Shown piece by piece: positions 8,173 through 56,586 of a stretch of DNA of 64,000 bases. The notes under the pieces were generated by a model that was given only the letters and a program-made list of their open reading frames with translations, ran no database searches and had not been told where the DNA came from. Both the position numbers and the translations under genes were made by a program. This stretch comes from Candidatus Helarchaeota archaeon (GTDB lineage Archaea > Asgardarchaeota > Lokiarchaeia > Helarchaeales > JABXJV01): NCBI GenBank assembly GCA_013375355.1, contig JABXJV010000421.1, positions 6,754 to 70,753 on the forward strand, in the 5' to 3' direction. Within the stretch, counting starts at the first letter, position 1; the number at the start of each line of letters is the position of its first letter.

Positions 8173-8892
8173 TTAAATTATTAAATTTTTAATTTCCAAC
8201 AAATTTTCGATAATATAATCTGGTTTTTTATTCGCAGAAAATTCAATGCTGCGATTGTGTTCTCTTTTTATTAAAATGGTATTAATTTTTGCATTTTTTC
8301 CAGCTTGAATGTCCAAATCTGTATCCCCTACAATATACATATTCTTATTAGAAAGCTGATATTTTTCCATAAATTCAATAATAGAATCTGGTTGGGGTTT
8401 TGCTTTATATTGCTGTTCAGTGCCAAGAAGATAAATTTCATGAAAAATTTTTTCATATGACAAATCAATTAAATCCAGCTCAAGATTTGCAATTGAAGCT
8501 GGAGTATTACTAATAATCCCTAATTTTACTTCATTATTATATTTTAATTCGTTAATTATGCCTCTAGCATCCTCAAATAGATATATTTCTCCATTTTCAA
8601 TCATTTTTTTTCTTTCAATTAAATCCTCTTCGTCGAAACGTCTCCAAAAATCATCTATATCAAAGATTACCCAGTTTCTAAGAAATTCATCAAATTTTCT
8701 TCCAGAACGCCAAAGTGTGTGAATTTCTTTTTTGGTAAGCTTTTTTTTAGTTAGGATGAAAACTACTTTGGTGATTATTACGTCCAGAACTTCAAAAAAA
8801 TTCTCTGGAACATGGATGATTGTACTTCTAGAAGAAGACTTCTAGAGAATTGTACCATCCAAATCAAATAGAACTCCAACTTCCTCATTCAT
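8173..8892 (-). CDS. HAD-superfamily phosphatase, interrupted by a 30-nt BHB intron
   Basis: The CDS reads complement(join(8173..8819, 8850..8892)), giving 229 aa. Exon 1 encodes MNEEVGVLFDLDGT, the HAD motif I with the nucleophile Asp. The 30-nt insertion at 8820-8849 then brings an in-frame TAG at 8842-8844. Removing it gives DLDGT-IIHVPENFFEVL, a normal motif I and cap entry. Motif II is IISNTPAS, motif III lysine lies in the YKAKPQPDS segment and motif IV is YIVGDTDLDIQAGKNA. The ATG overlaps the upstream stop as TAATG, so it is translationally coupled to the C_GCAxxG_C_C gene. Without splicing the product stops after 16 residues; an internal ATG at 8604 would lack the nucleophile. A substrate cannot be assigned. 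Confidence 0.8.
8820..8849 (-). other. BHB intron (30 nt) in the HAD phosphatase gene
   Basis: Read on the coding strand: outer helix UGGAUG with CAUCCA (6 bp), central helix GUAC with GUAC (4 bp), 3-nt bulges AAU and AAU, and an inner helix U(C)UCUAGAAG with CUUCUAGAA (9 bp, one bulged C) closed by loop UCUU. The archaeal endonuclease rule, cutting after the second base of each bulge, removes exactly 30 nt and joins codon ATC (phase 1). The intron holds the only in-frame stop. The 7-bp repeat GTACAAT at both ends is a result of the symmetric helix and bulges. Confidence 0.85.
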
Positions 8893-9344
8893 TATTCTAC
8901 ACTTTCACTAATTTCTAATAAAATTTCAACTGTTTTCATAACAAATTTAATACATTTTTCTTGCAAAATATTTAATTCAACAAGTTTCTTTCGATCCTCA
9001 GGATCCATGAGATCGCATTGGATTAGTTCATAACATATCTCACTTGCAAATTCATTTCTAAATTTTTTAATGAATTCATTGGCAAAATTATATGCTTTGC
9101 TTTTATCTTCATCAATATTTGACCTTCCATATTTTAGGTTTATTGCCAAAATTCCACCACTTACAGAACCACACACTGATCCACTTCTTCCTATTCCTCC
9201 ACCAAATGCCGTGGCAAGTTTAGGTGTTATGGGTTCCATATTCCATGCTTCTTGCATTGTCATAAGAACACCCTCTGCACAGTTAAACCCTTGTTTAAAA
9301 TAGAATGCTGCTTTCTTCGGGAAATCATTTTTCTGTTTTATCAT
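8892..9344 (-). CDS. C_GCAxxG_C_C-family putative redox protein
   Basis: About 150 aa. Family signature is visible: FKQGFNCAEGVL near residue 18, then FGGGIGRSGSVCGSVSGG near residue 53, and later cysteines in ASEICYEL and LIQCDL. These conserved cysteines are thought to bind metal or act in redox, but the family has no firm role. The ATG at 9344 is preferred; an in-frame GTG at 9353 would add three residues and overlaps a GTGA that could serve as ribosome site. The stop TAA overlaps the ATG of the HAD gene, so the two form an operon. Confidence 0.75.
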   Translation of the reverse strand: MIKQKNDFPKKAAFYFKQGFNCAEGVLMTMQEAWNMEPITPKLATAFGGGIGRSGSVCGSVSGGILAINLKYGRSNIDEDKSKAYNFANEFIKKFRNEFASEICYELIQCDLMDPEDRKKLVELNILQEKCIKFVMKTVEILLEISESVE

Positions 9345-9427
9345 TAATATCACTACTTATAGAAATTAAATAAATATTACAAAAGATATTATTTCAATTA
9401 ATTTCATTGGTCAATAAAAAATAAGGG

Positions 9428-10216
9428 TTGATTTGTATCAAAATAGTAGATACACATATTCATTCTATATTTAGAAGTAATGACGATTTTATTAATTTAG
9501 TAAAAAAACAAGTCACAAAAGCGATTACTGTATCATTTTATCCAATTGTACCTCTTTATTCAAATACTTTAATTGATTTATTTAGTTGGATTATTGAAGA
9601 TGAACCCCGTAGAACTAAATCTACAGGAATTACTATTCATCCCGCTATTGGTGTTCATCCTCGGTCGATACCTCAAGATCTTACAAAAGAAAATCTAAAG
9701 AAAATTCAATTAAAAATCGAGAATGCCATTGAACAGAATAAGATTGTGGCATTAGGTGAAATAGGTTTGGAGTCCGCAACACCAAAAGAAAAAGCAATTT
9801 TTGAATTTCATCTTCAAATTGCGAAAGAATTCGACTTTCCTGTAATCGTACACACTCCTAGAAGGAATAAAAAGGAGATCACAGAACAATCAATAGAATT
9901 ATTATTAAAATATAAAATAGAAAAGGGTGTTCTAGACCATATAGACGAGCAAAATCTTACACTAGCTAAAAATATAAGTTTAAATTTGGGTTTAACTGTC
10001 CAAATAGGAAAATTAACTCCAGAAAATTTCTATAATATAGTTAATGAAAATGAACATGAGATTCATCGCTTTGTACTAAATACAGATATTGGAAGAGATG
10101 AGGCGGATTTGTATTCGGCTTACAAAGCAATCAATATATTAAAAAATAAAGGAATTAGTGAAAATACAATAGATCTAATCGCATCTGGAAATGCAAAAAA
10201 GTTATTTAAGATATAA
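9428..10216 (+). CDS. TatD-like metal-dependent hydrolase (COG1099 type)
   Basis: 262-aa TIM-barrel amidohydrolase-like protein. Metal-site motifs seen are VDTHIHS near the N-terminus, GVHPRSIP near residue 75, ALGEIGLES near residue 110, PVIVHTPRR near residue 138 and VLDHIDE near residue 170, with a late Asp in NTDIGRDEAD. The order matches the TatD and archaeal COG1099 hydrolases. The start is a TTG at 9428 just after AAGGG; there is no in-frame ATG near it. The cellular substrate is unknown. It begins a plus-strand run with the VTT protein and GDPD genes. Confidence 0.75.
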   Translation: MICIKIVDTHIHSIFRSNDDFINLVKKQVTKAITVSFYPIVPLYSNTLIDLFSWIIEDEPRRTKSTGITIHPAIGVHPRSIPQDLTKENLKKIQLKIENAIEQNKIVALGEIGLESATPKEKAIFEFHLQIAKEFDFPVIVHTPRRNKKEITEQSIELLLKYKIEKGVLDHIDEQNLTLAKNISLNLGLTVQIGKLTPENFYNIVNENEHEIHRFVLNTDIGRDEADLYSAYKAINILKNKGISENTIDLIASGNAKKLFKI

Positions 10217-10256
10217 AGAGTATACAAAACCATTAATTCAAAATTTGTGATTTTTT

Positions 10257-11024
10257 ATGGAATTAACTAAAATAGATAAAATTTTTATTATTATTTTAGC
10301 TATTTTAGGTGTTCTATCTGTCTATTTTTATTTTAATCCTGAATTAGGGGCTTTTTTAAGTTTTTCTTCTTGGAAAATAGATCAGTTCTCTTTAGATGGT
10401 ACATTATTGATTGTTTTTATTGTTTGTCTAATAGGTAATTTATTACCGATTCCTACTCCTTACACTTTTATTATTATTCCTGCAGCGCTTTCTTTCCCAA
10501 ATTATTTCTGGTTAGTTGGATTAATGGCTTCATTTGGAGCATTATTTGGTGAGATTGTTGGTTTTTGGGTTGGTCGGGGCACAAAAGAAGTTTTAGAACA
10601 TACAGATGCAAATCTTGAAAAAATAGAAAAATGGAAACAGCTTGCAAAAGAAAGACCAAAATTCGTTATGTTTTTAATTTATCTTTTTGGTTTAACACCT
10701 TTAAATGATGATAATGTAATGATACCTTTGGGTTTAGCAGAATTTGATTTTAAAAAGACAGTCTTTTCATGCTATCTAGGAAAACTGTCAATGATGATGT
10801 TATTTGCACTTGGTACTGTAGTTGGAGTAGACTTAATTTATAGTATGATGGGGTATTCTCGATTTGAAATTTTAAATTATTTACCAGGAGCTTTAGGACA
10901 AGGTAATTGGTTAGAAGGTATGGTAGTATTCATTATCGTCATCATAATAGTTTGGGGCATGCTAAAAATAGATATTAGTAGATTTCTAAAGGAAAAATAT
11001 GGAGTAGAAAAATTAGAAGAATGA
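10257..11024 (+). CDS. VTT/DedA-like membrane protein
   Basis: 255 aa with about six hydrophobic segments: near residues 8-26, 46-66, 70-100, 134-155, 170-195 and 218-238. The GNLLPIPTPYTF and GALFGEIVGFWVGRG stretches and the re-entrant-like LIYLFGLTPLNDD segment resemble the VTT (SNARE-associated, DedA/TMEM41/VMP1) superfamily, which scrambles lipids. It sits 14 bp upstream of a glycerophosphodiesterase gene, so a lipid role is plausible. ATG 10257 is the clear start. Confidence 0.7.
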   Translation: MELTKIDKIFIIILAILGVLSVYFYFNPELGAFLSFSSWKIDQFSLDGTLLIVFIVCLIGNLLPIPTPYTFIIIPAALSFPNYFWLVGLMASFGALFGEIVGFWVGRGTKEVLEHTDANLEKIEKWKQLAKERPKFVMFLIYLFGLTPLNDDNVMIPLGLAEFDFKKTVFSCYLGKLSMMMLFALGTVVGVDLIYSMMGYSRFEILNYLPGALGQGNWLEGMVVFIIVIIIVWGMLKIDISRFLKEKYGVEKLEE

Positions 11025-11038
11025 AATAGGCGTGGGTT

Positions 11039-11743
11039 TTGAAAAATTTTACAATCATAGCTCATAGAGGAGCCAGTGGATATAAATTTGAAAATTCTAT
11101 TTCGGCTTTTAAAATGGCTATCGAATTAAAGGCAAATATGATAGAAACTGACGCTCAAATTACTAAAGATGGAGTAATTATTCTAAATCATGATAACAGT
11201 ATTAAAAAAACTACAAACCAAAAGGGACTCATATCAAAATTATCACTAGATGAACTTAAAAAAATTCCATTAAAAAATGGGGAATCAATGCCCACTTATC
11301 AAGAACTTCTAGATATAAGTAAAGGTAATATAGAAATTAATTTAGAAATAAAAGCTCGAAGAGTCGAGAAACTAGTTACAGATATTACTCTAAAGAATGA
11401 TATGCTAGAAAAAGTTGTGTTTTCATCTTTTTCACTGAAAACTCTTAAAACGATTAGGGAATATAATAATGATGCTAGACTAGCATATTTAATAATTATA
11501 CAAGGTTCTTTTATCGCTAGACTTAATTATTGGATGAAAAAAATAACTGAGCTAAATGTTGAAAGTATTAATCCCTTTCATATGTTCGTTTCTTCAAAAC
11601 TTGTAAAAGAAGCTCACAAACATAAAATTCTGATATATCCCTGGACAATTAATGATGCAATTAAAATTCGAAATTTAATAGAAGAAAAAAATATAGATGG
11701 TGTATTTACAGACTATCCTGATATTTTAAAGAAATTTATGTAG
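11039..11743 (+). CDS. glycerophosphodiester phosphodiesterase
   Basis: 234-aa GDPD TIM barrel that releases a polar head alcohol from glycerophosphodiesters. Catalytic residues lie in IIAHRGASG (first His, Arg), NSISAFKMA, IETDAQITKDG (Glu, Asp) and ILNHDNSI (second His). The C-terminal IDGVFTDYPD is the usual family end. Translation starts at TTG 11039; no in-frame ATG exists before the conserved HRG. The neighbouring VTT protein supports a membrane-lipid link. Confidence 0.85.
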   Translation: MKNFTIIAHRGASGYKFENSISAFKMAIELKANMIETDAQITKDGVIILNHDNSIKKTTNQKGLISKLSLDELKKIPLKNGESMPTYQELLDISKGNIEINLEIKARRVEKLVTDITLKNDMLEKVVFSSFSLKTLKTIREYNNDARLAYLIIIQGSFIARLNYWMKKITELNVESINPFHMFVSSKLVKEAHKHKILIYPWTINDAIKIRNLIEEKNIDGVFTDYPDILKKFM

Positions 11744-11811
11744 AAAAAATAGCTATTTCTAAATGATTCTAAACGATTAATTGTTAAAAATTAGATGTGT
11801 CTTGATAATAA

Positions 11812-13308
11812 ATGAAAAAAAATGGTTATGATGTTATTGTAATCGGATCTGGGATTGGCGGATCTGCTTGTGCAGCACTTCTTTCACATGCTGGATTTAA
11901 AACCTTAGTTTTAGAAAAAAATGATAGAATTGGTGGCTTTACTTCATGTTATGAAAAACACGGTTTTACAATAGATATTTCAATTCATGTTTTTTCAAAT
12001 GGTATAAATGGTCGATTTGGAAAAATTTTACACCGAATTGGTTTAGCTACAAAACAAAAGGGTAAAATATATAGTGATTACCTGAAATTTGTTCCAAATT
12101 TAGAAAGGAGAACTGCAATTAGAATGCCTAATCAAAAAAATTATATTTCTATGGGATCTATGCTAAATACTCAAAGACAGTTAACACTTGGAACAGATTC
12201 TGATAATATACAAAAAACTGTGTCCGATATGGGAATGAAGAAAGACAATGTAGATACTCTAATGAAAATTTTTATGACCATATTGGGTCTTACTAAAAGA
12301 AAAATCAGAAAATTAGAAGAGCAACAACTAACTTTAAGAAATTATATTGATTCCTTTACGAAAAGTCCATTTGTTCATAGTTTTCTTGCTTTTACAGTCG
12401 GTGGAATGTTCGCAATTTCTCCAAGAAGAGCTAGTGCAGCAGAATTTGTTAGAGGTATTCAAGAATGGTTTGGCTCTAATGATATGTCATATCCCATAGG
12501 GGGCAGTATTGCTGTCCCACTAGCATTCCTTGAAGGGTTTAAGAAATATGGCGGAGATATTAGAACCAAATCACCAGTTTCAGAAATTGTTATTGAGAAT
12601 AACAGAGCTAAAGGTGTGATGGTTAATGATGAATTTATCGAATCAAAGCTTGTTATTAGTAACACCGGAATAAAAAGAACTGTCCTTTCTCTAACTGGAG
12701 AAAAATTTTACGATAATAATTATGTCAACAAAATTAAATCCTTAGTGCCCTCTAATTCTTCAATAACCTTTAAATTTGCTTTAAATAAACAAATAATCCC
12801 CAAGGAGTTTGGAATGGTAAATATATTCCATAAAAATTTATTAAATTCAAGTGAAAAATCAAATGATGGTGCCACTAGGTCTACTGGTTTTATGACTATG
12901 ATTCCCTCAAATCTAGATCCAAATTTAGCTCCTCCAGGAAAGCAATTAATAATTTTTGGAACTTTAGCTCCAGCGAAAGGAGTTGCCGATTGGAAAAAAT
13001 GGACTGATATGCATTATCAAGAAATTCTACAAAATTACCCAGAAATTGAGGAAAATATCATTTTTGTGGATATTACTACACCATTAGATTTGGCTAACCT
13101 TTCAGGGAAAAAATATGGTCCTATAGAATCTACTGCCTTAATCCCATCACAATCAGGCCCTAACAGAATATCCTCAGAATTGCCAATTGAGGGGCTTTAT
13201 GTTGTCGGGGATAGTGCCGGAACTAATACTCATGGGATTGGAACACAACTCGCAGCAGATAGTGCTATAAAGTGTGCAGATTTAATTATTTCAAAATATA
13301 AGTCATAA
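11812..13308 (+). CDS. FAD-dependent oxidoreductase of the phytoene desaturase/carotenoid isomerase group
   Basis: 498 aa. The N-terminal Rossmann dinucleotide site reads IVIGSGIGGSACAALL with LEKNDRIGGF after it, and the C-terminal FAD-binding motif is EGLYVVGDSAGTNTHGIG. The middle holds the SPRRASAAEFVRGI and YPIGGSIAVPLAFLEGF segments found in COG1233 enzymes. Family members saturate, desaturate or isomerise isoprenoids; no carotenoid genes are nearby, so an archaeal-lipid or quinone substrate is equally possible. It stands 68 bp after the GDPD gene. Confidence 0.75.
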   Translation: MKKNGYDVIVIGSGIGGSACAALLSHAGFKTLVLEKNDRIGGFTSCYEKHGFTIDISIHVFSNGINGRFGKILHRIGLATKQKGKIYSDYLKFVPNLERRTAIRMPNQKNYISMGSMLNTQRQLTLGTDSDNIQKTVSDMGMKKDNVDTLMKIFMTILGLTKRKIRKLEEQQLTLRNYIDSFTKSPFVHSFLAFTVGGMFAISPRRASAAEFVRGIQEWFGSNDMSYPIGGSIAVPLAFLEGFKKYGGDIRTKSPVSEIVIENNRAKGVMVNDEFIESKLVISNTGIKRTVLSLTGEKFYDNNYVNKIKSLVPSNSSITFKFALNKQIIPKEFGMVNIFHKNLLNSSEKSNDGATRSTGFMTMIPSNLDPNLAPPGKQLIIFGTLAPAKGVADWKKWTDMHYQEILQNYPEIEENIIFVDITTPLDLANLSGKKYGPIESTALIPSQSGPNRISSELPIEGLYVVGDSAGTNTHGIGTQLAADSAIKCADLIISKYKS

Positions 13309-13396
13309 AATTTTTTTTTTAAATTTCAGATCAAAATTTGTGGGGTTTAAATACTGATCTAAGAGTAAGACAGTAATCTGAAAAAAGAGTGAGAGT

Positions 13397-13444
13397 ATGC
13401 CGAAAGTATTAGGATTTGATAAAATTGATGTTACCTTGTTTTAA
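13397..13444 (+). other. possible 15-codon leader ORF
   Basis: ATG at 13397 sits 6 nt after a GAGTGAGAG purine-rich stretch, a better ribosome site than that of the downstream gene. It encodes MPKVLGFDKIDVTLF and ends at TAA 13442-13444, overlapping the next gene in another frame. A TATA-like TTTAAATA near 13347 would start transcription just before it. This may be a leader peptide that sets translation of the zinc-ribbon gene, or the start of a frameshifted longer form. Confidence 0.3.
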
Positions 13445-13655
13445 ATGTAAAAAATGCGACACGAATTGGATTATTGATATTTATTCAGATTCCAAAGAAG
13501 GCATTATTCAAAAATTCATGAGTCAAATGTGTTGTCCAATTTGTGGAAAAAGAGATTTAAGAGTTTGCTTTATTCAAAAATTACAAGATAAAATTCCTGA
13601 TATAATTCAAGAATCAATTAATGATTATGATGAAATATCTCAGTCCCTAATTTAA
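13428..13655 (+). CDS. small zinc-ribbon protein, function unknown
   Basis: About 75 aa. Two cysteine pairs, CFKCKKC and CCPICGKR, form a likely zinc ribbon in the first 45 residues; the acidic C-terminal tail has no motif. ATG 13428 is preferred over the in-frame TTG at 13416, but its ribosome site is weak. The gene overlaps a short leader-like ORF. I do not recognise the family. Confidence 0.5.
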   Translation: MLPCFKCKKCDTNWIIDIYSDSKEGIIQKFMSQMCCPICGKRDLRVCFIQKLQDKIPDIIQESINDYDEISQSLI

Positions 13656-13683
13656 ATACTTTGAAATTTTGTTCATTTATTAA

Positions 13684-13974
13684 TTAGGTTCCACGTCTTC
13701 TATATTTACATCCTTTTATCGGGCAAAACCTATAAAGAGGGGCTGAAGACCCAGCTACTGGTCGTCGAAGGATCCATCCCGCATTCCATCCATGCTTTGG
13801 ACAATGATATTTTTCGCTTTGATCTAATTTTTTATCTAAATCTTCTTGTGTTTCTTTAAAATTACATACTTCATGGCTTTCTCTATATTTTTCATTAACT
13901 GGACATTCATTCCCTTTACGCGGGTTATCCTCAGAATTTATACAGCCAGTACAATCAACGGGGAATTTCTCCAC
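13684..13974 (-). CDS. cysteine-rich small protein, function unknown
   Basis: 96 aa with eight cysteines: CTGC at residues 8-11, single Cys in NECPV and EVCNF, CPKHGWNAGW near residue 58, and CPIKGCKYRRRG at the C-terminus. This pattern suggests one or two zinc sites. The start is GTG 13974, as no ATG exists in frame upstream. It converges with the zinc-ribbon gene 28 bp away. No family recognised. Confidence 0.5.
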   Translation of the reverse strand: MEKFPVDCTGCINSEDNPRKGNECPVNEKYRESHEVCNFKETQEDLDKKLDQSEKYHCPKHGWNAGWILRRPVAGSSAPLYRFCPIKGCKYRRRGT

Positions 13975-14141
13975 CTCATTTATATTGCTAATATTACCAA
14001 AATTGTCATTTTAATTTATAATATAATATTCGTTTAATTTTTAATAAATTAACTTCATATTATCCTTAAAAATAAAAATAATTTATTTTCACTATAAAGA
14101 ATTAAAGTCCTACGATTTTTTAATAAGAGGAGAAATTAATT

Positions 14142-15662: not shown

Positions 15663-15828
15663 CATTTTTTCTTGTTTTTATTTAACTTCTCCAGTAGAAA
15701 TTAAGGAGTTTTTTGATTTTATGTCAAATCTATTTGAGCTAATTTATTCTATTTCTAATAACCATAATAATTAAGTCAAATCGTTTAGAGTTAAATAATT
15801 TCTATGGCCTGGCGTTGACTTTACATTT

Positions 15829-15873
15829 GTTTGTAAATACTTAAAATCAATCTTACTAAATCCATTTACAAAC
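15829..15873. repeat. 45-bp inverted repeat, copy A (GTTTGTAAAT arms)
   Basis: Left arm GTTTGTAAAT at 15829-15838 and right arm ATTTACAAAC at 15864-15873 are perfect complements with 25 bp between. Total span is 45 bp, the same as copy B at 16551-16595. The two copies flank the ORB-like elements. Confidence 0.7.
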
Positions 15874-15910
15874 ATTTAATTTTTTGATTAATTTAAAAAT
15901 ATCTCAATAG

Positions 15911-15937
15911 ACTCCATCATTTCCATTGGAATTTTAC
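15911..15937 (-). promoter_or_regulatory. ORB-like element 1
   Basis: On the minus strand it contains ATTCCAATGGAAATGATGG followed by AGT. The TTCCAATGGAA dyad plus G-rich tail matches the archaeal ORB pattern, though the G-run is weaker (GGAG) than in the other two. Confidence 0.55.
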
Positions 15938-16096
15938 AATAGCTATTTCATTTAAATATATAATCAACAAAATTTTATAAAATTATAAAGTTTAATTCAC
16001 ATAGACTTTATAAACCCTTTTTATCCATAACTAACGACTAATATTATTATCATATATAAAGAGATAATAATTATATAGCTCAGCATATTATTATCA

Positions 16097-16123
16097 GTTC
16101 CAATGGAAAAAAAGGGGTGTTAA
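16097..16123 (+). promoter_or_regulatory. ORB-like element 2
   Basis: Plus-strand GTTCCAATGGAAAAAAAGGG with another G and TGTT after it. It has both the dyad and the full GGGG run and is the best match of the three. Confidence 0.65.
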
Positions 16124-16310
16124 AATCAATTTTTTTCTCTATAAACCTAGCAAAAATGTTAGGCTTGAAGAAAAAATATAGAAAACTATAATAGAAATTA
16201 AGCTTAAAACAAATAAAATTTTAATTTAATATTATTGTTAACAAATAATTAAGTTTATAAAATCAAGTCTTATAACTTGAAGACTTATTAATTTTTCTTA
16301 AATTAATTTT

Positions 16311-16337
16311 ATAACCCCTTCATTTCGACTGGAACTT
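16311..16337 (-). promoter_or_regulatory. ORB-like element 3
   Basis: Minus-strand GTTCCAGTCGAAATGAAGGG followed by GTTAT. It shares TTCCA, GAAA and the GGGGT run with element 2 and points toward it. Confidence 0.62.
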
Positions 16338-16550
16338 AAATCTTAGTATCATTTAGATGATAGCTTCATGTTATTAAATGGTTATTTCAAATCAAAAGAA
16401 AAACGAAAATTTATATTATAGAATATTATAAAGAATTAATACGAAATCTTTCAGTTTTTTTAATATATTTACTATTTAAATGTCCATAAAAGCTAATTTT
16501 AAGTTTAATAACCATTGAAAAATTCTTTGTCTATCAGGAACAAAAAAAAC

Positions 16551-16595
16551 GTTTGTAAATAGAAGATCAAAAATTATAAATAACTATTTACAAAC
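16551..16595. repeat. 45-bp inverted repeat, copy B (GTTTGTAAATAG arms)
   Basis: Arms GTTTGTAAATAG (16551-16562) and CTATTTACAAAC (16584-16595) are perfect 12-bp complements. The 21-bp spacer holds an ATTATAAATA TATA-like box, and the right arm ends 11 bp before the ATG at 16607. A dimeric regulator binding here could control that gene. Confidence 0.7.
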
Positions 16596-16606
16596 ACATA
16601 ATAATT

Positions 16607-17023
16607 ATGGTTAAAGAAGAGGTATCAGGTATTATAATCAAAAATGGAAGAAAAATTATAGAAGATATTAATAGACAATTTAAATATGAGATGAAAATAT
16701 ATAATGAAATATTAAGAGAAAATCAAAATTTATTTTTACGCGACACTCATGTAAAGAGGGGTAAAAAAATCTATAAATATTGGTATAGATATGAGTGGGA
16801 TCCTATAAAAAAAAGGACCGTACATAAATATGTAGGTAATATAAAACCTAATGAAGAAGTTTCGGATCCACCAGTAAATCTTATAGAAACTCTTAATTTT
16901 AAAGAAATTAAGGGCACAAACGATATTATTTTATCATTAAAAGATTACGAGCAAAACAGACCTCTTTTCCACAAATGTAAAATTCAGTATATAATAAAAG
17001 AAAGTAAAAAGATTAAAACATAA
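16607..17023 (+). CDS. hypothetical basic protein beside the origin candidate
   Basis: 138 aa, strongly basic, with a central segment GKKIYKYWYRYEWDPIKKR followed by TVHKYVGNIKP. That segment recalls a short beta-hairpin found at the start of some transposase and DNA-binding proteins, but I do not recognise the family. An inverted repeat lies over its promoter. It is followed 25 bp later by the HAD fusion gene. A DNA-binding role tied to the 45-bp repeats is a guess from position only. Confidence 0.55.
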   Translation: MVKEEVSGIIIKNGRKIIEDINRQFKYEMKIYNEILRENQNLFLRDTHVKRGKKIYKYWYRYEWDPIKKRTVHKYVGNIKPNEEVSDPPVNLIETLNFKEIKGTNDIILSLKDYEQNRPLFHKCKIQYIIKESKKIKT

Positions 17024-17048
17024 AAATTAATTAACACACTTTTAATTT

Positions 17049-24401: not shown

Positions 24402-24513
24402 TGGTGCGGGAGCTGGGAATTTCAGGAATATTAAAATATCCCATTTGAACCCAGGAAGGCCTTCGCACATAGGGACCTGAACCCTACTCCTTTGACCACT
24501 TGGATACTCCCGC
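24402..24513 (-). tRNA. tRNA-Leu (anticodon CAG) with a 25-nt T-loop intron
   Basis: On the minus strand the acceptor arms GCGGGAG and CTCCCGC pair, followed by discriminator A and encoded CCA. The anticodon stem TAGGG/CCCTA holds loop TTCAGGT, giving CAG. It is a class II tRNA with a long variable arm. The T-arm (CTGGG/CCCAG) is interrupted by an intron at 24419-24443; splicing gives the standard loop TTCAAAT. Confidence 0.9.
24419..24443 (-). other. tRNA-Leu(CAG) BHB intron at position 59/60
   Basis: Central helix UUCA/UGAA, bulges AAU and AUU, and inner helix about GGGAUAU with AUAUUCC (one G-U). The T-stem itself serves as the outer helix. Removal is 25 nt. Confidence 0.88.
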
Positions 24514-32944: not shown

Positions 32945-33199
32945 TTGCCTAGTGAAATAAGATCATTATTGAATAAAATTAAATGGGATCCTCAATTAAA
33001 AAGGAAAGATTTTCTTGTGACATTTATTCATAGAGGAATTCCGAGAAACAGAAAAACTATTGAATCCAAACAATTAAGAGATATTACTCAGAATTTTTTT
33101 TCATATAAAGATAATGGAAATATAACGCATATCCCATTTCATAGGATAATTGAGATTAAGAATAAAGAAACAAATGAAATAATATATTTAAAAAAATGA
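32945..33199 (+). CDS. MJ1316-type RNA cyclic group end recognition domain protein (UPF0248)
   Basis: 84 aa. IRSLLNKIKWDP, the central VTFIHRGIPRNRKTIE and IPFHRIIEIKN match the UPF0248/DUF504 family, thought to recognise RNA ends with 2',3'-cyclic phosphate. Such ends are made by the archaeal tRNA splicing endonuclease, which is of interest given the many introns here. Start is TTG 32945. It is 9 bp before the Nog1 gene, so the two form an operon. Confidence 0.78.
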   Translation: MPSEIRSLLNKIKWDPQLKRKDFLVTFIHRGIPRNRKTIESKQLRDITQNFFSYKDNGNITHIPFHRIIEIKNKETNEIIYLKK

Positions 33200-37695: not shown

Positions 37696-38624
37696 ATGGA
37701 AATAATTTTTTTAGGAACATCTGGGACAGTTCCAACTGTTACACGCAGTTTGCCTGCAATAATGATAAAAAGAGAAGATGATTTTTTGCTTTTTGATTGC
37801 GGTGAAAAAAACTAATTAATTGTAGTTTTCACTAAGGCACACAACTTCAATTTAGAAAAGCAAAAATCAGTTTTTTTAAGATTAATAAGATTTTTCTTTC
37901 GCATTTACATGGCGATCATATTACTGGTTTACCTGGTTTAGTGATGTCATTAGCTTTAGGTAAAAGAGAAAAAAATCTTTCAATTTATGGACCCAAGGGG
38001 ATTAAAGAATTTATAAATAACGTTATTGATACAATGCATTTTGATTTAACATATCCTTTAGAAATAGTTGAAATAAACGGAGAGGAAAATTTTGAATTTT
38101 TAAATTACAAAATTACGTGTTTTCCTTTAGAACATAGGATATTTACATTAGGATTTATTATTATTGAAAAACCAACTGCAAAATTCGATGTTGAAAAGGC
38201 CAAATCGTTAAACATTCCAAAAGGCCCTTTATGGGGAAAATTAAAATCAGGAGAAAGTATTTATTTAAATAATGGAAGAGTTATCCAACCTTCTCAAGTT
38301 TTAGGTAATATAAAACCCGGAAAAAAAATATTATATTGTACAGATACTCGTCCTACAATTAAGACAGAAGATTTAAGTAAGAACGCAGATTTACTAATTC
38401 ATGATGGCATGTTTGAAGAAAATTTAAAGGACTTTGCTACAATTGGGGGACATTCAACAGTAGTTGAAGCAGCAAAACTAGCTAAAAATGCGAATGTAAA
38501 AAAATTAATCCTTTTCCATATAAGTTCAAGATATGAAAATAATAGTTCTATTTTAGAACTTCAAGCAAGAAATATTTTTCCTCATTCATTCATAGCTGAA
38601 GATCTTATGAGAATTTTAGTTTAA
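37696..38624 (+). CDS. rnz: ribonuclease Z, interrupted by a 29-nt BHB intron
   Basis: CDS reads join(37696..37806, 37836..38624), 299 aa, normal length for archaeal RNase Z. Exon 1 encodes [14 protein letters not shown] through FDCGE. The unspliced frame meets TAA two codons later. Removing the intron restores [16 protein letters not shown], the invariant CGEGTQ, then [12 protein letters not shown] metal motif, [17 protein letters not shown] and [15 protein letters not shown]. The enzyme trims tRNA 3' ends. It follows Trm-G10 by 14 bp. No other start could produce an active enzyme, as ATG 37941 lies beyond the metal motif. Confidence 0.87.
37807..37835 (+). other. BHB intron (29 nt) in the RNase Z gene
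   Basis: Outer helix UGC/GCA, central helix GGUG with CACU (4 bp, one G-U), bulges AAA and AAG, inner helix AAAACUA with UAGUUUU (7 bp) and loop AUUAAUUG. Cutting after the second base of each bulge removes 29 nt and joins GGT GAA with GGC ACA (phase 0). Confidence 0.85.
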
Positions 38625-45932: not shown

Positions 45933-46039
45933 GGGCCGGTAGATCAGCCTGGTATGATCGCCACGCTTGCAACGTGGAGATTGAAAAAATTATTAAAATC
46001 AACCATATGTCCCGGGATCGAAGCCCGGCCGGTCCACCA
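45933..46039 (+). tRNA. tRNA-Ala (anticodon TGC) with a 29-nt variable-loop intron
   Basis: Acceptor GGGCCGG pairs with CCGGTCC (one G-U), then A and encoded CCA. The anticodon stem CCACG/CGTGG holds loop CTTGCAA, giving TGC. The T-arm is CCGGG/CCCGG with loop ATCGAAG. The intron at 45980-46008 separates the anticodon stem from the T-arm; splicing gives the normal variable loop AGGTC. First of three tRNAs in a row. Confidence 0.9.
45980..46008 (+). other. tRNA-Ala BHB intron in the variable loop
   Basis: Central helix GUGG with CCAU (one G-U), bulges AGA and AUG, inner helix UUGA/UCAA. Cutting after the second base of each bulge removes 29 nt and leaves AGGTC. Confidence 0.82.
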
Positions 46040-46053
46040 TCAAAAAAATCAAT

Positions 46054-46125
46054 GGCCGGAATAGTATAGTGGTAGTATGAGGGATTGTGGCTCCCTTAAC
46101 TCGGGTTCAAATCCCGATTCCGGCC
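46054..46125 (+). tRNA. tRNA-His (anticodon GTG)
   Basis: G-1 at 46054 pairs with discriminator C at 46125, as expected for tRNA-His. The acceptor GCCGGAA pairs with TTCCGGC; anticodon stem AGGGA/TCCCT has loop TTGTGGC; T-arm is TCGGG/CCCGA with loop TTCAAAT. It has no intron and no encoded CCA. The only uninterrupted tRNA gene in the window. Confidence 0.93.
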
Positions 46126-46141
46126 CTTTTTATATTATCAG

Positions 46142-46248
46142 GCGGGAGTGTCCGAGTTGGTCAAAGGAGCTGGGCTTAGGACCCAGTGGCGTAGGCCTGC
46201 ATGGGTTCGAATGGATAAGAAATCCCGGAAAACCCATCTCCCGCACCA
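46142..46248 (+). tRNA. tRNA-Leu (anticodon TAG) with a 20-nt T-loop intron
   Basis: Acceptor GCGGGAG/CTCCCGC, discriminator A, encoded CCA. The anticodon stem CTGGG/CCCAG has loop CTTAGGA, giving TAG. Class II with long variable arm. The T-stem ATGGG/CCCAT is separated by an intron at 46212-46231; the spliced loop is TTCGAAA. Confidence 0.92.
46212..46231 (+). other. tRNA-Leu(TAG) BHB intron at position 59/60
   Basis: Only 20 nt. The T-stem is the outer helix; central helix UUCG/CGGA, bulges AAU and AAA, inner helix GGAU/AUCC, loop AAGAA. Same position as in tRNA-Leu(CAG) and tRNA-Gly. Confidence 0.88.
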
Positions 46249-47676: not shown

Positions 47677-47859
47677 ATTTATCATTTTTATTTAAATTTT
47701 TTAAAGATATTTTTGAGTTATTTTCTAATTTTCTTATGAACTAAGTATTTTTCCTTTAATCAATAAATTAAAAATATTGAAAATCTTTAAAATGAATAAT
47801 TAATTAAAATAATTGATTAATAAATAAATAGAATTGCATATAAAAGCAAGGAAAATCCA

Positions 47860-48819: not shown

Positions 48820-48822
48820 GAT

Positions 48823-49830: not shown

Positions 49831-49905
49831 TAAAAATCAACTACTTTTTTTATAGATATTAATAAATTAAAAATAACGGTTTTTTGTCGAAGGAGAAATT
49901 GATTA

Positions 49906-50760: not shown

Positions 50761-51875
50761 AGAGCCTGAAATACTAATTCTCCTAAATCGTATAATTTCA
50801 GTTTTGAGTTAGTATAACGAATTACTCGCTCAAATGTGGATTCACAAGTCGGACACATTGTTACTAATGCTTCTGCACCTGTTGCTTCTGCTGTATTTAA
50901 CCGTTTTGTTGCTATATCAATACTTAAATCTGCATTAGCTGAAAGCATACCTCCTCCAGCCCCACAACATTTAGCTTCATATTTATTATTATCCATTTCA
51001 AGGAGTTCAATTCCAGGAATACTTGTTAATATAATTCTAGGATATTCTAGAATTCGCATATGTCGTCCTAAATCACAAGGATCATGCCAAGTTACCTTCA
51101 TTTTAATTTTATTTTGAAAATTTATTCTACCAATTTTTAATAAATCGGCAAGAGCTTCGGTATAATGTAAAATTTCAGGATTAAAATTTGTTTCCAGTTT
51201 AACATATTTATTCTTTAAGATTTTATAACAACCAGGACAAGGAGTAATAATTTTTTCAATTTCTTTTTTATTAAATATTTCAATATTTTTGAGGGATAAT
51301 GCATGAAACTTTTCTAAATATCCTGTAGTAGATAATACAGCTCCGCAACACCTTTCATTTTCACCAAAATAATTAAGCTTAAATCCTAATTTAATTAAAG
51401 AACAATATATTTTTTTCAATCGTTCAGGTTGCAAGTATGGATAAACACATCCTGCAAAAAACAATTTATTTGAACTTTTAGAAATTGGTAGTCCATCTGA
51501 CCAATTCGAACGCTTTTCATTCGATTCTTTGAAGGGATTGTTATAATCAAGAATATTTTTAACACTTATTCTATGATATTTATTCTCATGACCCATATTT
51601 ATTAAATCTGCTCTTAAAGATTCAATCAGATCAACATTATTTAATGCACAACGATATAAACAATATCCGCACGTTGTACATAAACTAATACAATCGATTA
51701 ACTCTTTATTAGGTTTTATCGAACCCTCAATTAACCCTCGGGCAATAAGCATTTTACCTCGACAGCTATAAGCTTCATATCTAAGTTCGGAATAAACAGG
51801 GCAATTTTCGCGACAAAAGCCACATCTTGTTCTATTACAAGTGTATATATTTTCCTTTAAATCATCGATATACAT
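50757..51875 (-). CDS. CCG-domain Fe-S protein (HdrD/GlpC-like)
   Basis: 372 aa. Two N-terminal 4Fe-4S sites are CNRTRCGFCRENCPVY and CISLCTTCGYCLYRC. Two cysteine-rich CCG domains follow, with NERCCGAVLS near residue 180 and AKCCGAGGGMLS near residue 305. Such proteins pass electrons in heterodisulfide reductase, lactate or glycolate dehydrogenase complexes. No flavoprotein partner is next to it. Start ATG 51875 is clear. Confidence 0.85.
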   Translation of the reverse strand: MYIDDLKENIYTCNRTRCGFCRENCPVYSELRYEAYSCRGKMLIARGLIEGSIKPNKELIDCISLCTTCGYCLYRCALNNVDLIESLRADLINMGHENKYHRISVKNILDYNNPFKESNEKRSNWSDGLPISKSSNKLFFAGCVYPYLQPERLKKIYCSLIKLGFKLNYFGENERCCGAVLSTTGYLEKFHALSLKNIEIFNKKEIEKIITPCPGCYKILKNKYVKLETNFNPEILHYTEALADLLKIGRINFQNKIKMKVTWHDPCDLGRHMRILEYPRIILTSIPGIELLEMDNNKYEAKCCGAGGGMLSANADLSIDIATKRLNTAEATGAEALVTMCPTCESTFERVIRYTNSKLKLYDLGELVFQAL

Positions 51876-52030
51876 TTTTAATCATTATAATGTTTAATTA
51901 ATTTATTTTTTTACTGCCAAACGATATTTTTAATTTATAATTTTTTTCTAATATTCTAAAAGCAAAATTTTTTAAAAATTATTGATTCTTTTTTAATAAC
52001 AATAAAAAATAATTATCCGTTCTATAATGA

Positions 52031-52489
52031 ATGAGGTGTTATGTAACGACAGGTTTAAAATCACCAAAAGGCGAATTTGCAGGAAGATTATTAATTAAGA
52101 AGAGAAAAAAATTCCGTTGGAAGGATATTAGATATAAAAGAAGAAAATTGAAGTTGAATATAAAATCAGATCCATTAGAGGGTGCTCCTCAAGCACGAGG
52201 TATCGTTCTAGAAAAAATTGGAATAGAAACAAAACAACCAAATTCAGGAATTCGTAAATGTGTTCGTATTCAACTTATTAAAAACGGAAAGCAAATAACT
52301 GCATTTCTCCCTGGTGATGGAGCATTAAATTTTATTGATGAGCATGATGAAGTTCTAGTTGAAGGTATTGGGGGGGCGAAAGGTCGTGCTGTAGGTGATC
52401 TACCAGGCGTTAGATGGAAGGTTATTAAAGTAAATAATGTGGGGCTCGAATCTCTTTTAACAGGTAAAAAAGAAAAACCTATAAGGTAA
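52031..52489 (+). CDS. rps12: ribosomal protein uS12
   Basis: 152 aa. The conserved core is [54 protein letters not shown] and [12 protein letters not shown], all hallmarks of archaeal S12 in the decoding centre. The N-terminal [15 protein letters not shown] is atypical. Elsewhere it is usually next to rps7 and EF genes, but here it stands alone. Ribosome site GGTG is weak. Confidence 0.95.
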
Positions 52490-52504
52490 ATTATTTAGAT
52501 ATTC

Positions 52505-53563
52505 TTAAATAGGAGAACCTGGCAAGTTAGTTTTTAATTGCATATTTGATATTTTTAATATAGTGGGGGCAACATCTAGAGTTGAATAAGTTCGTGATGA
52601 ATAATCCGGAGGATATTTAAGTTTATAATTTTTGCTTATAATAATAAGGGGAACGTATACTTCTTCTTTTAAATATCCACCGTGACTCCCGTTTAAATTT
52701 TCCTTTTCAAATTCAATCCCCTTATTTGCAGAAATCACAATATCTCCAGTCCTTTTATGATGTAATTTAATATCCTTCGTTTGTGATTTCAGAAAAATTT
52801 TGTCAATTTCTTTTAATTGGTTGAGTTCTTCTATTATTTCTTTATTGTTCTCATTTGAGTAAATATGACATGCTCGATGAGATTCTAAGAATTGGCTTGA
52901 TATTCCTTCTTTTTGAAAATAACTTTTTAAATCAAATCTTCTAGATACCTTAGTCATACCATGGTCTGCGGTAATTATCATTATTAATTTATCGTCAATA
53001 ATTTCATAGATTTTTGATAAAAAATGATCGCATTTAGATATTTCATCCAGATATTTTTTATTATCAGGACCAAATGTTTCACCATAACCATCAACTCCTG
53101 CAAAATTAATTACCCCAAATTTGATATTATAATCTCTTAATAATTTCAAAGATTTATCAAAAATTAGTTCATCCCTTTCTTCTAAGGGAATTTTATTTAA
53201 TTCTTTCATAGAAAATGTATAATCTGCTCCTTTTGTTATAGGTTCTGCTACAGCCATAGTTCTTAGTGATTTAAGCATTTCAAAAAGAGTCTGGGTTTGA
53301 ATATATTCAGAAGGGTCATAATAGTCAAAATGTTTTACTTTTTTATCATTGCTATCAAAAAATTGATTACCAATCATTCCATGTTGTTCAGGAAAAGTGC
53401 CAGTTACGATTGTAGAGTGCCCGGTATAAGTTGCTGTTGGAAATACTGTCTTACAATTAAAGCTTATGAATCCTTTTTCACTTAAAGAATCTATGAATGG
53501 GGTTTGAGCTTTAATATATGAATTTATTGCACAACCGTCTAAAATAAATAATAAAATAATCAA
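52505..53563 (-). CDS. type I phosphodiesterase/nucleotide pyrophosphatase (alkaline phosphatase fold)
   Basis: 352 aa. Metal/nucleophile motifs are FILDGCAINSYI at the N-terminus, FPTATYTGHSTIVTGTFPEQHG with the catalytic Thr, ADHGMTKVSRR in the middle and the NGSHGGYLKEE region late. No leader peptide is clear, although the first residues MIILLFIL are hydrophobic. Substrate may be nucleotides or phosphodiesters. Convergent with rps12 15 bp away. Confidence 0.8.
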   Translation of the reverse strand: MIILLFILDGCAINSYIKAQTPFIDSLSEKGFISFNCKTVFPTATYTGHSTIVTGTFPEQHGMIGNQFFDSNDKKVKHFDYYDPSEYIQTQTLFEMLKSLRTMAVAEPITKGADYTFSMKELNKIPLEERDELIFDKSLKLLRDYNIKFGVINFAGVDGYGETFGPDNKKYLDEISKCDHFLSKIYEIIDDKLIMIITADHGMTKVSRRFDLKSYFQKEGISSQFLESHRACHIYSNENNKEIIEELNQLKEIDKIFLKSQTKDIKLHHKRTGDIVISANKGIEFEKENLNGSHGGYLKEEVYVPLIIISKNYKLKYPPDYSSRTYSTLDVAPTILKISNMQLKTNLPGSPI

Positions 53564-53871
53564 AGAAATCCCATTTTAATATTATATTCAATTGCTGTTT
53601 TTCAAAATTTAAATAGAATTTTAGATTTTTAAATAGATTTTTTAATAGAAAAATAATTTGTAAAAGGAAAAAAAGAGAAATTTATGAAAATAATAAAAGT
53701 TCCAAAATAATTTATTGAATAAAAGAAATTATTATGAATGAAAATATTGTTTGAGAGGATAATTTTATAATAAATTCAGCAAGAACGTTAATCTTTCAAA
53801 ATTTGTGGGTATTAAATATCAAAAATTCTAATCATTTATAAAATACAATTAAGTGAACAAGTGGATTATCG
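53564..53871. other. AT-rich intergenic region
   Basis: 308 bp between the phosphodiesterase gene and a Roadblock gene. Nothing beyond AT-rich promoter-like sequence is seen. Confidence 0.4.
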
Positions 53872-54249
53872 ATGTCAGTTTTAATAAAAAACTACAATAT
53901 TGATAAATTAAAAGAATGTTTAGAGGATCTTAATTCAAAAAATGGAAATAAAGGATGTATTTTATGCTCAGAAGAAGGTTTAGTTGTTATTTCAACAAAA
54001 AATGGAAACAATCAAATAGATTTTGACTCATTGGCTGCTATGGGCGCAACATTATTGAGTATTATGAATGATCAAATTTTTTTAGATATAATAATAACAT
54101 ATGAAAACAAAAAAGTCTTTATCCGTAAAATAAACGGAGATATTTGTAATTTTATATTCATTAATATTTTTGAATATAATAAAAGATATTTTAGGCGAGA
54201 TGTAAACAAAACAATTAAAAAAATTAGTAAACTTCTAACTTCATATTAA
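53872..54249 (+). CDS. Roadblock/LC7-like protein
   Basis: 125 aa. GCILCSEEGLVVISTK, DFDSLAAMGATLLSIMNDQ and a final basic helix follow the Roadblock strand-helix order. The middle is less conserved than in the 40.7-kb copy. No partner GTPase is next to it; the next genes are tRNA-Gly and the EF-2 paralogue on the other strand. Confidence 0.65.
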   Translation: MSVLIKNYNIDKLKECLEDLNSKNGNKGCILCSEEGLVVISTKNGNNQIDFDSLAAMGATLLSIMNDQIFLDIIITYENKKVFIRKINGDICNFIFINIFEYNKRYFRRDVNKTIKKISKLLTSY

Positions 54250-54276
54250 AAAATGATTTTGGTGCAGCTGCCGAGA

Positions 54277-54307
54277 TTTTTGGAATAAATCTAAAATATT
54301 TAATTCT
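54277..54307 (-). other. tRNA-Gly intron 2 at position 59/60
   Basis: T-stem as outer helix; central pairing UUCG with CAAA (one C-A mismatch), bulges AAA and AAU, inner helix GAAU(U)AAAU with AUUUAUUC. 31 nt removed. Confidence 0.8.
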
Positions 54308-54336
54308 TTCGAACCCGGGTCAGAGGCTTGGGAGGC

Positions 54337-54367
54337 TTCCGTAAATTGATCCATAATGATCAATTTG
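54337..54367 (-). other. tRNA-Gly intron 1 in the anticodon stem (near 29/30)
   Basis: Inner helix AAAUUGAUC/GAUCAAUUU (9 bp) with loop AUUAUG; the 4-base sides ACGG and ACGG pair only by a CG/CG core; bulges GGC and AAG; outer AGG/CCU. Geometry and spliced product fit, but the central helix is weak, so the exact boundary may shift. Confidence 0.6.
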
Positions 54368-54421
54368 CCCCGTCCTAACCGACTAGACTACAGCTGCATT
54401 ATATTTATTTTTAAAATAATA

Positions 54422-56586
54422 CTAATTATTATTAAAAAAATCTGCTTTAGGTATTTCAGCTTTTCTACCTTTTTTAACACGAATGTCTGAAATGATTTTT
54501 TGAGCGCTATCGTAGGGAATAAATTCCCAATGAGAAAATATTGTTTGCCAAAATGCTTGGCCAGCAGTCTTTGAACGAATATCAGAAGCTAAATTAAATG
54601 ATTCTTTAACTGGAATTAGACCAGTGATAAAAGAATAAGAGCTTTTTTGTTCAACATCTAAAATCTTTCCTTTCCGTTGTAATAATAAAGCTGTAATTAT
54701 TCCTATTAAATCCATAGGAACTTGAATTTGAATCTTATAAATTGGTTCGAAAATGGTAGGTTCTGCTTTTAAAAAAGCGTTGTAAATTGCTCTTTTACCC
54801 ATTAACATTATTTGAAGCGGATCGACTTCTAAAGTTTTTTTATCAATTTTTAACGAATTAATATTTATTTGTAATCCTTTTATTGGCTCTTCGCATAAAG
54901 GACCTGCATTTAGAGCCATTTTAATACCTTTTATAATAATTTGTTTGATTTTATCATCCAAATAATCTTGTTTTAAATTATTAATGATTAGATTATTATT
55001 GTAATCTATTGCTAAAATTTTCCTATGCTTCAGGATTTCTTTAATTTGGTCTTCATTTATTGGTTCTAGTGATATTTGAATTAAGTTCAAATTGTTTTGA
55101 CTTTTAATTGAAATTAAGGGACTTCTTTGTTTAATTCCTTCTCTGTATACTATAATTGGGTCGGACATTAGAATATCAATTCCTAAATTTTTCATTTCAT
55201 TTGCAATAATTTCTAGATGCAATTGTCCAATTCCAGAAATCAGATATTCCCCTGTATCTTCATTAATATTGATTTTTATATCAGGATCATTCACTTCAAT
55301 TTTATTTAAGATATCCAACATTTTAGGTAATTCTTTTGGATGTTTGGGTTCAATAGAAACCGTTATAACAGGTTCCGATACATATTTTATATTTTCAAAT
55401 GGGTCAATTTCATCTTTAAATTCAATTTGAGTTAAGGTTTCTCCTACTGTTGCTTTCGAGAGACCTATAAAAGCTCCAATATTACCTGCTGTAAGAGAAT
55501 TAACATTTTCTCTTTTATGTCCCATTGAAATGAAAATTTGTTGAATTCGATTATTTTCCTTTGCATTTAATAAATAAACTTCATCACCTGAATTAATAGT
55601 TCCTGAAAATATACGGCCTATTGAAATTCTTCCTACATGTTTGTCAAATAATATCTTATGAATACAAATAATAAAAGGTCCATTTTCATTACATGCTTGC
55701 ATATTACGTGCTACATATGAGTTTAGATTTCCTTTCCAAATTTTTTTAATTCTATACCTTTGGGCAATTTTTGGACTTGGTAAATGATTAATTATCATAT
55801 CTAATATGCATTTATCTAAAGGTAAAATTCCACTTAAAGTCCTAATTTTTTCCATTCCATTTTTATAATAATTTAAAATATTTTCAAATTTTAGTCTCTT
55901 ATTTAACATAGTATTTACGGTAAACCCCCAACTAGGATTTAGTGCACACCCAAATCCTACATTATTTTTTTCTGGAATTATTTTCCATTTGTCTTTAAAT
56001 TCATCTTCTGCATAAATTTCAATATAATCGTTAAATTTATCAATTATATTTTCAAAATGTTTTTCAATTTCATGGGAATTTAATTTTAATTCTTTAATAA
56101 GACGATCAACTTTGTTTATATACAAAATTGGTTTTATACATTCTTGCAAAGCTTGTTTTGTTACAATTTCTGTCTGAATTTGACAACCTTCAACTGCATC
56201 TACAACTACAATAGCACCATCAATCGCTCTCAAAGCTCTAGATACTCTAGCTGTTAAATCCACATGGTCTATAAAAATACTATCTATTTTTATATATGAC
56301 CTGGAGTATCAATTAAATTAATAATGTAATTTTTATTAGCTATTTGATATAATAATGAAATATTTGCTGTCTTAACTGTAATTCCTCTTTTTTGTTCTAT
56401 TTCTAAATAATCTAGAGCTCGAAGTGAGCCTGCCAAATTTGAAGATATTATCTTACCCAATGCTAATAGACTATCAGTTAATGTAGTCTTTCCATGATCA
56501 ATATGCGCTATAATACCAATATTACGTATGCTATCTTTTTTTTTCATTGTTTTTAAAATTTCATTAATTTTTTTAGATTTAACCAT
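54422..56586 (-). CDS. EF-2 paralogue (aEF2p-like), interrupted by a 32-nt BHB intron
   Basis: CDS reads complement(join(54422..56263, 56296..56586)), 710 aa. Exon 1 holds G1 AHIDHGKTTLTD, the KRGITVKTA switch I and NLIDTPGH (G3). The intron brings TAA just after GHI. Splicing gives DTPGH-VDLTARVSRALRA, the normal EF-2 sequence, followed by NKVDRLI (G4) and the later domains. The diphthamide loop is changed: where EF-2 has HRG-type sequence, this has TLEVDPLQIMLMGKRAI, with no His. Asgard archaea are known to carry such an EF-2 paralogue besides true EF-2, so this is probably the paralogue. Its exact job is unknown. Confidence 0.85.
56264..56295 (-). other. BHB intron (32 nt) in the EF-2 paralogue gene
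   Basis: A near-ideal motif: outer helix UCCA/UGGA (4 bp), central helix GGUC/GACC (4 bp), bulges AUA and AUG, inner helix UAUAAAAAUA/UAUUUUUAUA (10 bp, perfect), loop GAUAG. Cutting after the second base of each bulge joins GGT CAT with GTG GAT (phase 0). Confidence 0.92.

What the first reader, a model, noticed from the sequence alone, without database searches (positions are those of the whole stretch)
8173..56586. Genome-wide habit of tiny BHB introns shared by mRNAs and tRNAs
Three of about seventy protein genes and four of five tRNA genes in 64 kb carry introns of 20-32 nt with the same architecture (4-bp central helix, 3-nt bulges, small hairpin). This density in protein genes is far above what is known for archaea. 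It would be missed by standard annotation, which would call the genes pseudogenes or frameshifts. It suggests an active intron-gaining process or a relaxed splicing endonuclease, and that many broken genes in this lineage are in fact intact. The MJ1316-domain protein at 32945, of a family linked to cyclic-phosphate RNA ends, may belong to the machinery.
Basis: partly seen in the sequence, partly recalled or inferred. Interest (0 to 1): 0.95.

Follow-up and report, generated by a model that had tools for sequence, protein, structure and literature searches.

The report
Archaeal messenger RNAs with tRNA-style introns
In what is likely an uncultured Asgard archaeon, three protein genes, one of them for an elongation-factor-2 protein, are interrupted by 29-32-base inserts that fit the folding pattern of archaeal tRNA introns and are predicted to be cut out of the messenger RNA; the elongation factor's reading frame breaks at the same codon in many relatives, so archaeal genes called broken may often be intact.

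Summary
The observation largely holds. [quoted passage not shown] Removing each insert at the predicted cuts gives one open protein, gap-free at the junction against intact RNase Z and HAD relatives.

New evidence comes from relatives. Of 120 listed EF-2 exon-2 matches, 12 start exactly at the codon after the insert; of 120 listed exon-1 matches, 18 stop 0-2 residues after DTPGH.

EF-2 and HAD inserts sit in nearly the most conserved stretch of their proteins.

No RNA data exist here: splicing by the archaeal endonuclease and ligase is inferred, and neither gene is in the window. No relative's DNA could be read, so BHB geometry is shown only in this contig. The MJ1316 link is untested.

The parts
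56296..56586 (-). EF-2-family gene, exon 1 (97 codons, ends ...DTPGH)
   Evidence: held as a separate 98-aa ORF P0131
56264..56295 (-). predicted 32-nt BHB intron in EF-2 mRNA (core GGTC/GACC, bulges ATA/ATG, outer TCCA/TGGA, 10-bp hairpin)
54422..56263 (-). EF-2-family gene, exon 2 (starts VDLTARV...; lacks the HRGPAQ diphthamide loop)
37696..37806 (+). RNase Z gene, exon 1 (ends ...FDCGE)
37807..37835 (+). predicted 29-nt BHB intron in RNase Z mRNA (core GGTG/CACT, bulges AAA/AAG, outer TGC/GCA, 7-bp hairpin)
37836..38624 (+). RNase Z gene, exon 2 (starts GTQLQF...)
8850..8892 (-). HAD-family hydrolase gene, exon 1 (ends ...DLDGT plus one base)
8820..8849 (-). predicted 30-nt BHB intron in HAD mRNA (core GTAC/GTAC, bulges AAT/AAT, 6-bp outer helix, hairpin with one bulged C)
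   Evidence: junction fixed by intact relatives P0002-P0006, P0009
8173..8819 (-). HAD-family hydrolase gene, exon 2
45933..46039 (+). tRNA-Ala(TGC) gene
45980..46008 (+). 29-nt intron in the variable loop of tRNA-Ala (core GTGG/CCAT, bulges AGA/ATG, no outer helix)
46055..46126 (+). tRNA-His(GTG), no intron
46142..46248 (+). tRNA-Leu(TAG) gene
46212..46231 (+). 20-nt BHB intron in the T-loop of tRNA-Leu(TAG) (core TTCG/CGGA, bulges AAT/AAA)
24402..24513 (-). tRNA-Leu(CAG) gene
24419..24443 (-). 25-nt BHB intron at the same T-loop site of tRNA-Leu(CAG) (core TTCA/TGAA, bulges AAT/ATT)
32945..33199 (+).
   Evidence: PF04457

Best explanation
The 29-32-base inserts in three protein genes are predicted to be BHB introns that the archaeal tRNA splicing endonuclease would cut out of the pre-mRNA, with the exons likely joined by the tRNA ligase RtcB. 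Shown: BHB geometry in the three mRNAs and three tRNA genes; one open protein or tRNA after removal; the EF-2 frame breaking at the same codon in many relatives. Inferred steps: (1) in the pre-mRNA each insert supplies the reverse complement of four exon bases, and in all but tRNA-Ala the exons also supply the outer helix, so a 4-bp core with two 3-nt bulges forms; (2) the endonuclease cuts after the second base of each bulge; (3) RtcB ligates the cyclic-phosphate and 5'-OH ends; (4) the inserts arose one by one at sites whose flanking bases already form half a BHB, favouring codons of conserved motifs, and some are still being gained or lost.
For: Geometry: 3 of 3 mRNA inserts and 3 of 3 tRNA inserts fit the 4-bp core and 3-nt bulges, with cuts that restore the product.

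Homology: spliced RNase Z aligns to E. coli 2cbn and B. subtilis 1y44 without a gap at the junction and rises from 298 to 359 bits on TIGR02651. Spliced HAD aligns 229/229 without gaps to intact P0003. Spliced EF-2 rises from 557 to 689 bits on TIGR00490.

Chance: at most 7.1e-4 per mRNA insert under a lax null.

Relatives: 12 of 120 listed exon-2 matches start at the codon after the insert. 18 of 120 listed exon-1 matches stop 0-2 residues after DTPGH. Four longest-contig lengths (70753, 313714, 15191, 9545) occur in both lists.

The two tRNA-Leu introns share a site and keep the core through one two-sided change (G-C to A-T) and one one-sided change (T.G to T-A).
Against: No RNA reads, no endonuclease or ligase gene in the window, and no relative's DNA was readable, so the BHB in relatives is inferred from where their reading frames end. 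The spliced EF-2 score (689 bits) stays under the curated cut-off of 738, as expected for a divergent EF-2 without the diphthamide loop, but it could also be a decaying paralogue. In the free RNA fold (30-nt flanks) the core helix is dominant only for EF-2 (0.89) and RNase Z (0.90-0.98). It is minor for HAD (0.07-0.08) and the tRNAs (0.00-0.40), and in all six cases the MFE structure is more stable than the drawn BHB. BHB-like motifs by themselves are not enriched in the window.
Confidence: 0.88

Rival explanations
1. Translational bypassing: the ribosome hops over each insert, as over the byp elements of yeast mitochondria or phage T4 gene 60 (recalled, from no call), guided by a hairpin and matching take-off and landing triplets.
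For: The mRNA inserts are short and form hairpins. The triplet before the insert equals its last triplet in EF-2 (CAT/CAT), and in HAD the exon end and insert end share six bases.
Against: RNase Z does not match (GAA against TAA). The same architecture is in three tRNA genes, which no ribosome reads. The exon-intron core helix and 3-nt bulges are not required by bypassing.
Confidence: 0.05
2. Gene fission or decay: the halves are separate proteins or the genes are dead.
For: The halves are listed apart in the database. The EF-2 lacks the diphthamide loop and may be a dispensable second copy.
Against: The split falls inside DTPGH|VD of the G domain, DCGE|GTQ and DGT|I. The frames on both sides of each insert stay open. 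The break is shared at one codon by relatives of 46-84% identity in exon 2. An uninterrupted protein with the same residues exists for one split pair.
Confidence: 0.04
3. Assembly or sequencing errors.
For: The contig is likely from a metagenome, so errors are possible.
Against: BHB fit at each of the six inserts. The same EF-2 break is found in contigs from several sources.
Confidence: 0.01

Closest known systems
BHB intron of crenarchaeal cbf5 pre-mRNA (PMC2738675, passages read)
   Same: Small BHB intron (described there as short, from 16 nt) in a protein gene; cuts between second and third bulge base; sits in the codon of the catalytic Asp, as these sit in conserved motifs; lineage-specific loss.
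   Different: One confirmed gene, in Desulfurococcales and Sulfolobales (the paper says that introns in other protein genes had been predicted but not confirmed). Here three other genes in 64 kb of a likely Asgard genome, and an EF-2 break seen with and without in otherwise identical proteins.
tRNA introns of Atabeyarchaeia and Freyarchaeia (PMC11291895, passages read)
   Same: Asgard lineages with introns in 92-95% of tRNA genes, often at non-canonical positions.
   Different: The passages that I read speak of tRNA genes only; no protein-gene intron is mentioned in them.
Haloferax volcanii splicing endonuclease substrates (PMC7714728, passages read)
   Same: Splicing endonuclease cuts tRNA and rRNA precursors and one mRNA.
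   Different: One newly identified mRNA substrate; no set of interrupted protein genes is reported in the passages that I saw.
Putative 12-bp introns in archaeal virus genes (cited within PMC2738675)
   Same: Very small inserts in protein genes, gained recently.
   Different: Shorter, viral, and splicing not demonstrated.
EF-2 paralogue lacking diphthamide residues in archaea (PMC10307638, passages read)
   Same: The window's EF-2 lacks the HRGPAQ loop.
   Different: No intron is mentioned in the held text (0 occurrences).

Membership tests
Archaeal BHB introns | 4-bp core helix flanked by two 3-nt bulges on opposite strands | tested here: met
   6 of 6 inserts
Archaeal BHB introns | outer helix from the exons and inner hairpin from the intron (full hBHBh') | tested here: met
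   Outer helix of 3-6 bp in 5 of 6; not met in tRNA-Ala, which has none; HAD inner helix has a bulged C
Archaeal BHB introns | cut after the second bulge base on both sides gives an intact product | tested here: met
   Three open proteins; ARAGORN calls the three tRNAs only after removal, though Rfam finds Ala with the insert in place
Archaeal BHB introns | structure dominates the free RNA fold | tested here: inconclusive
   Core probability 0.89-0.98 for EF-2 and RNase Z, 0.00-0.40 for the others
Archaeal BHB introns | excision by EndA-type endonuclease and ligation by RtcB | not testable with these tools
   No RNA data; no such gene among the 64 window genes scanned with Pfam or NCBIfam; no genome held
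Group I or group II self-splicing introns | catalytic RNA core, hundreds of nt | tested here: not met
   Inserts of 20-32 nt; Rfam finds only two tRNAs at gathering scores
Translational bypass elements | matching take-off and landing triplets | tested here: not met
   EF-2 and HAD match, RNase Z does not
Spliceosomal introns | GT-AG ends | tested here: not met
   None of the three mRNA inserts begins with GT and ends with AG

The most novel reading that the evidence does not exclude
Asgard archaea of the Helarchaeota and Jordarchaeia type run an mRNA-wide BHB splicing habit: dozens to hundreds of protein genes per genome carry 20-35-nt introns that keep being gained and lost at a recurrent kind of site, the codons of conserved catalytic motifs whose flanks already form half a BHB. 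The EF-2 GH|VD site is the hotspot, and the introns may be inserted by a process that leaves short direct repeats.
Probability: 0.4. Interest if true: 0.93.

Novelty: new variant of a known kind. Interest (0 to 1): 0.86.

Why it matters
If spliced, these would be BHB mRNA introns in a translation-factor gene of Asgard archaea, the archaea held to be closest to eukaryotes, at a density that would make intron gain in an archaeal genome directly measurable. In practice, EF-2 and other genes in Asgard MAGs would be wrongly scored as broken or missing, which bears on phylogenies, on gene-loss claims such as those for EF-2 and diphthamide, and on estimates of genome completeness. An EF-2 found with and without the break, otherwise identical, is a natural starting point for studying how such introns arise.

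Tried and rejected
Motif counting alone: rejected as evidence, because BHB-like motifs in the window match the shuffled expectation (148 against 134 +- 14; strong ones 54 against 48 +- 6.6).

First placement of the HAD intron from the hairpin only: ambiguous until intact relatives fixed the junction. The strict scanner missed it because of the bulged C.

Fifth tRNA gene: sought by T-arm search, BHB-splice scan and deletion scan; not found. Rfam at E up to 10 gave three tRNA matches (two full, one partial) and five others that look like chance.

Relatives' DNA: the single scan of genome contigs with EF-2 exon 2 returned one unrelated bacterial locus (L001), so the BHB could not be read in relatives.

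Relaxed endonuclease: considered and not needed.

The EF-2 tree (quick method, 38 rows, of which 12 split) needs 5 changes of state, but row P0024 sits on a long branch and seven split rows have odd composition. I use it only to say that split and whole forms mix within the Jordarchaeia-type group.

Rows left out: P0017 and P0031 were 'unclear' among the 120 exon-2 matches and not counted as split or whole. P0155 is among the 18 exon-1 matches but has an odd N-terminus and may be a contig end. The tree used 38 of the 120 rows.

Literature: ten searches of the held library. In their listings and in the passages that I opened I saw no report of introns in Asgard protein genes. Preprints and most subscription papers are not held, and the EF-2/diphthamide paper PMC6143161 is not held, so this is weak evidence of novelty.
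Full report
What the window is. GC is 27.7%. Among the nearest relatives of two genes are proteins named as Helarchaeota and Hodarchaeota, and the window encodes roadblock proteins, Ras- and Arf-like GTPases and an Urm1-like protein. I take it to be a Helarchaeota-type Asgard archaeon; this is inferred. No whole genome is held for it.

Protein genes. I list 64 genes. Three are interrupted. (a) EF-2 family, minus strand: the frame runs ...LIDTPGH and stops one codon on; a second frame starts VDLTARV after a 32-nt insert. (b) RNase Z, plus strand...FDCGE, then 29 nt, then GTQLQF. (c) HAD hydrolase, minus strand...FDLDGT, then 30 nt, then IIHVPEN (the insert falls after the first base of an Ile codon). 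Removing the inserts gives 710, 299 and 229 residues without a stop. RNase Z then aligns from residue 1 to E. coli and B. subtilis RNase Z with no gap at the junction. HAD aligns 229 of 229 to P0003 with no gap, and six relatives read DGT[IL]IHVPE without an insert (P0002-P0006, P0009). EF-2 gains the N-terminal part of TIGR00490, though its score (689) stays under the cut-off (738).

Architecture. All six inserts, in mRNAs and tRNAs, have a 4-bp core made of four exon bases and four bases near the intron's 3' end, with 3-nt bulges at both cut sites. The outer helix is 4 bp in EF-2, 3 bp in RNase Z, 6 bp in HAD, 5 bp in both tRNA-Leu genes, and absent in tRNA-Ala. The two tRNA-Leu introns sit at the same T-loop site, and their cores (TTCG/CGGA and TTCA/TGAA) differ by one two-sided and one one-sided change that keep the pairs. 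ARAGORN calls these three tRNAs only after removal; Rfam sees Ala with the intron in place and Leu-TAG only as a partial match below the gathering score. In the free RNA fold the core helix dominates for EF-2 and RNase Z but not for the other four, and the MFE is below the drawn BHB in all six.

Chance. For intervals of 20, 25, 29, 30 and 32 nt in 22 genes of the same window, the strict motif fits at most 3.5e-5 of about 28,000 positions, and the lax motif with +-2 nt slack at most 7.1e-4. The motif by itself is common and not enriched.

Relatives. Among the 120 listed of 3965 exon-2 matches, 12 begin exactly at the codon after the insert, 106 contain the site uninterrupted, and 2 are unclear. 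Among the 120 listed of 1388 exon-1 matches, 18 end 0-2 residues after DTPGH, with no Val next; one of these (P0155) is doubtful. They include a protein named as Lokiarchaeota (P0138) and one named as Jordarchaeaceae (P0148). Four longest-contig lengths occur in both lists (70753, 313714, 15191 and 9545), which I take to be contigs that hold both halves; contigs themselves were not readable. For 15191 bp, the halves P0148 and P0021 match the uninterrupted P0022 (contig 11891 bp) at 97/97 and 635/635 residues. So one EF-2 protein exists with and without the break. Whether P0022 is an intronless allele or an assembly of spliced RNA I cannot tell. In the tree split and whole forms mix within this group. 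P0001 (204 aa) also starts downstream of the site, which is compatible with a break but does not show one.

Where the introns sit. A 10-residue window over the junction ranks 5th of 701 for conservation in EF-2 (105 sequences) and 2nd of 220 in HAD (7 sequences). RNase Z's junction lies in DCGEGTQ, present in the E. coli chain; its rank was not computed. The other archaeal mRNA intron site that I read about, in cbf5, lies in the codon of the catalytic Asp (PMC2738675). That makes four of four in conserved stretches of the protein. One caution is that an interruption is easier to notice in a conserved stretch, so ascertainment may contribute.

A clue to origin. In four of six introns the two bases before the 5' cut equal the last two intron bases (0.095 at random places of the window; P = 0.001 for four or more of six). 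This would fit insertion with a short duplication or microhomology. With six cases it is only a lead.

EF-2 type. The window's EF-2 and the Helarchaeota-type rows that reach that region (P0012-P0017, P0024) lack the HRGPAQ diphthamide loop, while the Jordarchaeia-type EF-2s with the same break (P0019, P0021, P0023, P0026) keep it (25 rows aligned). PMC10307638 (passages) says that many archaea without dph genes carry a second EF-2 lacking these residues. The window gene may be that paralogue, so its essentiality is open.

Machinery. No splicing endonuclease or RtcB was found among the 64 window genes scanned with Pfam or NCBIfam. The MJ1316-domain gene lies beside a NOG1 GTPase gene; a role in splicing is neither supported nor excluded.

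Compared with what is known. In the held papers that I opened, archaeal mRNA splicing is described for cbf5 (PMC2738675), with unconfirmed predictions for other genes, and one Haloferax mRNA is cut by the endonuclease (PMC7714728). Asgard genomes rich in tRNA introns are described in PMC11291895. I saw no report of introns in Asgard protein genes in ten searches. The introns are ordinary in build. The gene set, the density and the with/without EF-2 pair are what appears new.

Noticed in passing
61305-62930 (-), with 61054-61242 (+) and 63217-63507 (+): A 541-aa ORF weakly like a phage transposase family (phrog_12300; no Pfam hit; no solved relative) lies between a full DUF211 gene (PF02680) and a short frame whose end resembles the DUF211 C-terminus: a possible mobile element beside a duplicated target fragment.
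   Followed up: partly
54422-56263 (-): EF-2-family protein without the HRGPAQ diphthamide loop (EVDPLQ instead); P0012-P0017 and P0024, its relatives that reach that region, lack it too.
   Followed up: partly
24402-24513 (-) and 46142-46248 (+): Two tRNA-Leu isoacceptors carry introns at the same T-loop site with core helices that differ but stay paired.
   Followed up: yes
ends of the six inserts: Short direct repeats: the last two or more bases of exon 1 equal the last bases of the intron in four of six.
   Followed up: partly
15663-16606: A 944-nt gap with no gene on my list; TTTACAAAC and its complement occur near 15820-15880 and again near 16550-16600. Not examined further.
   Followed up: no
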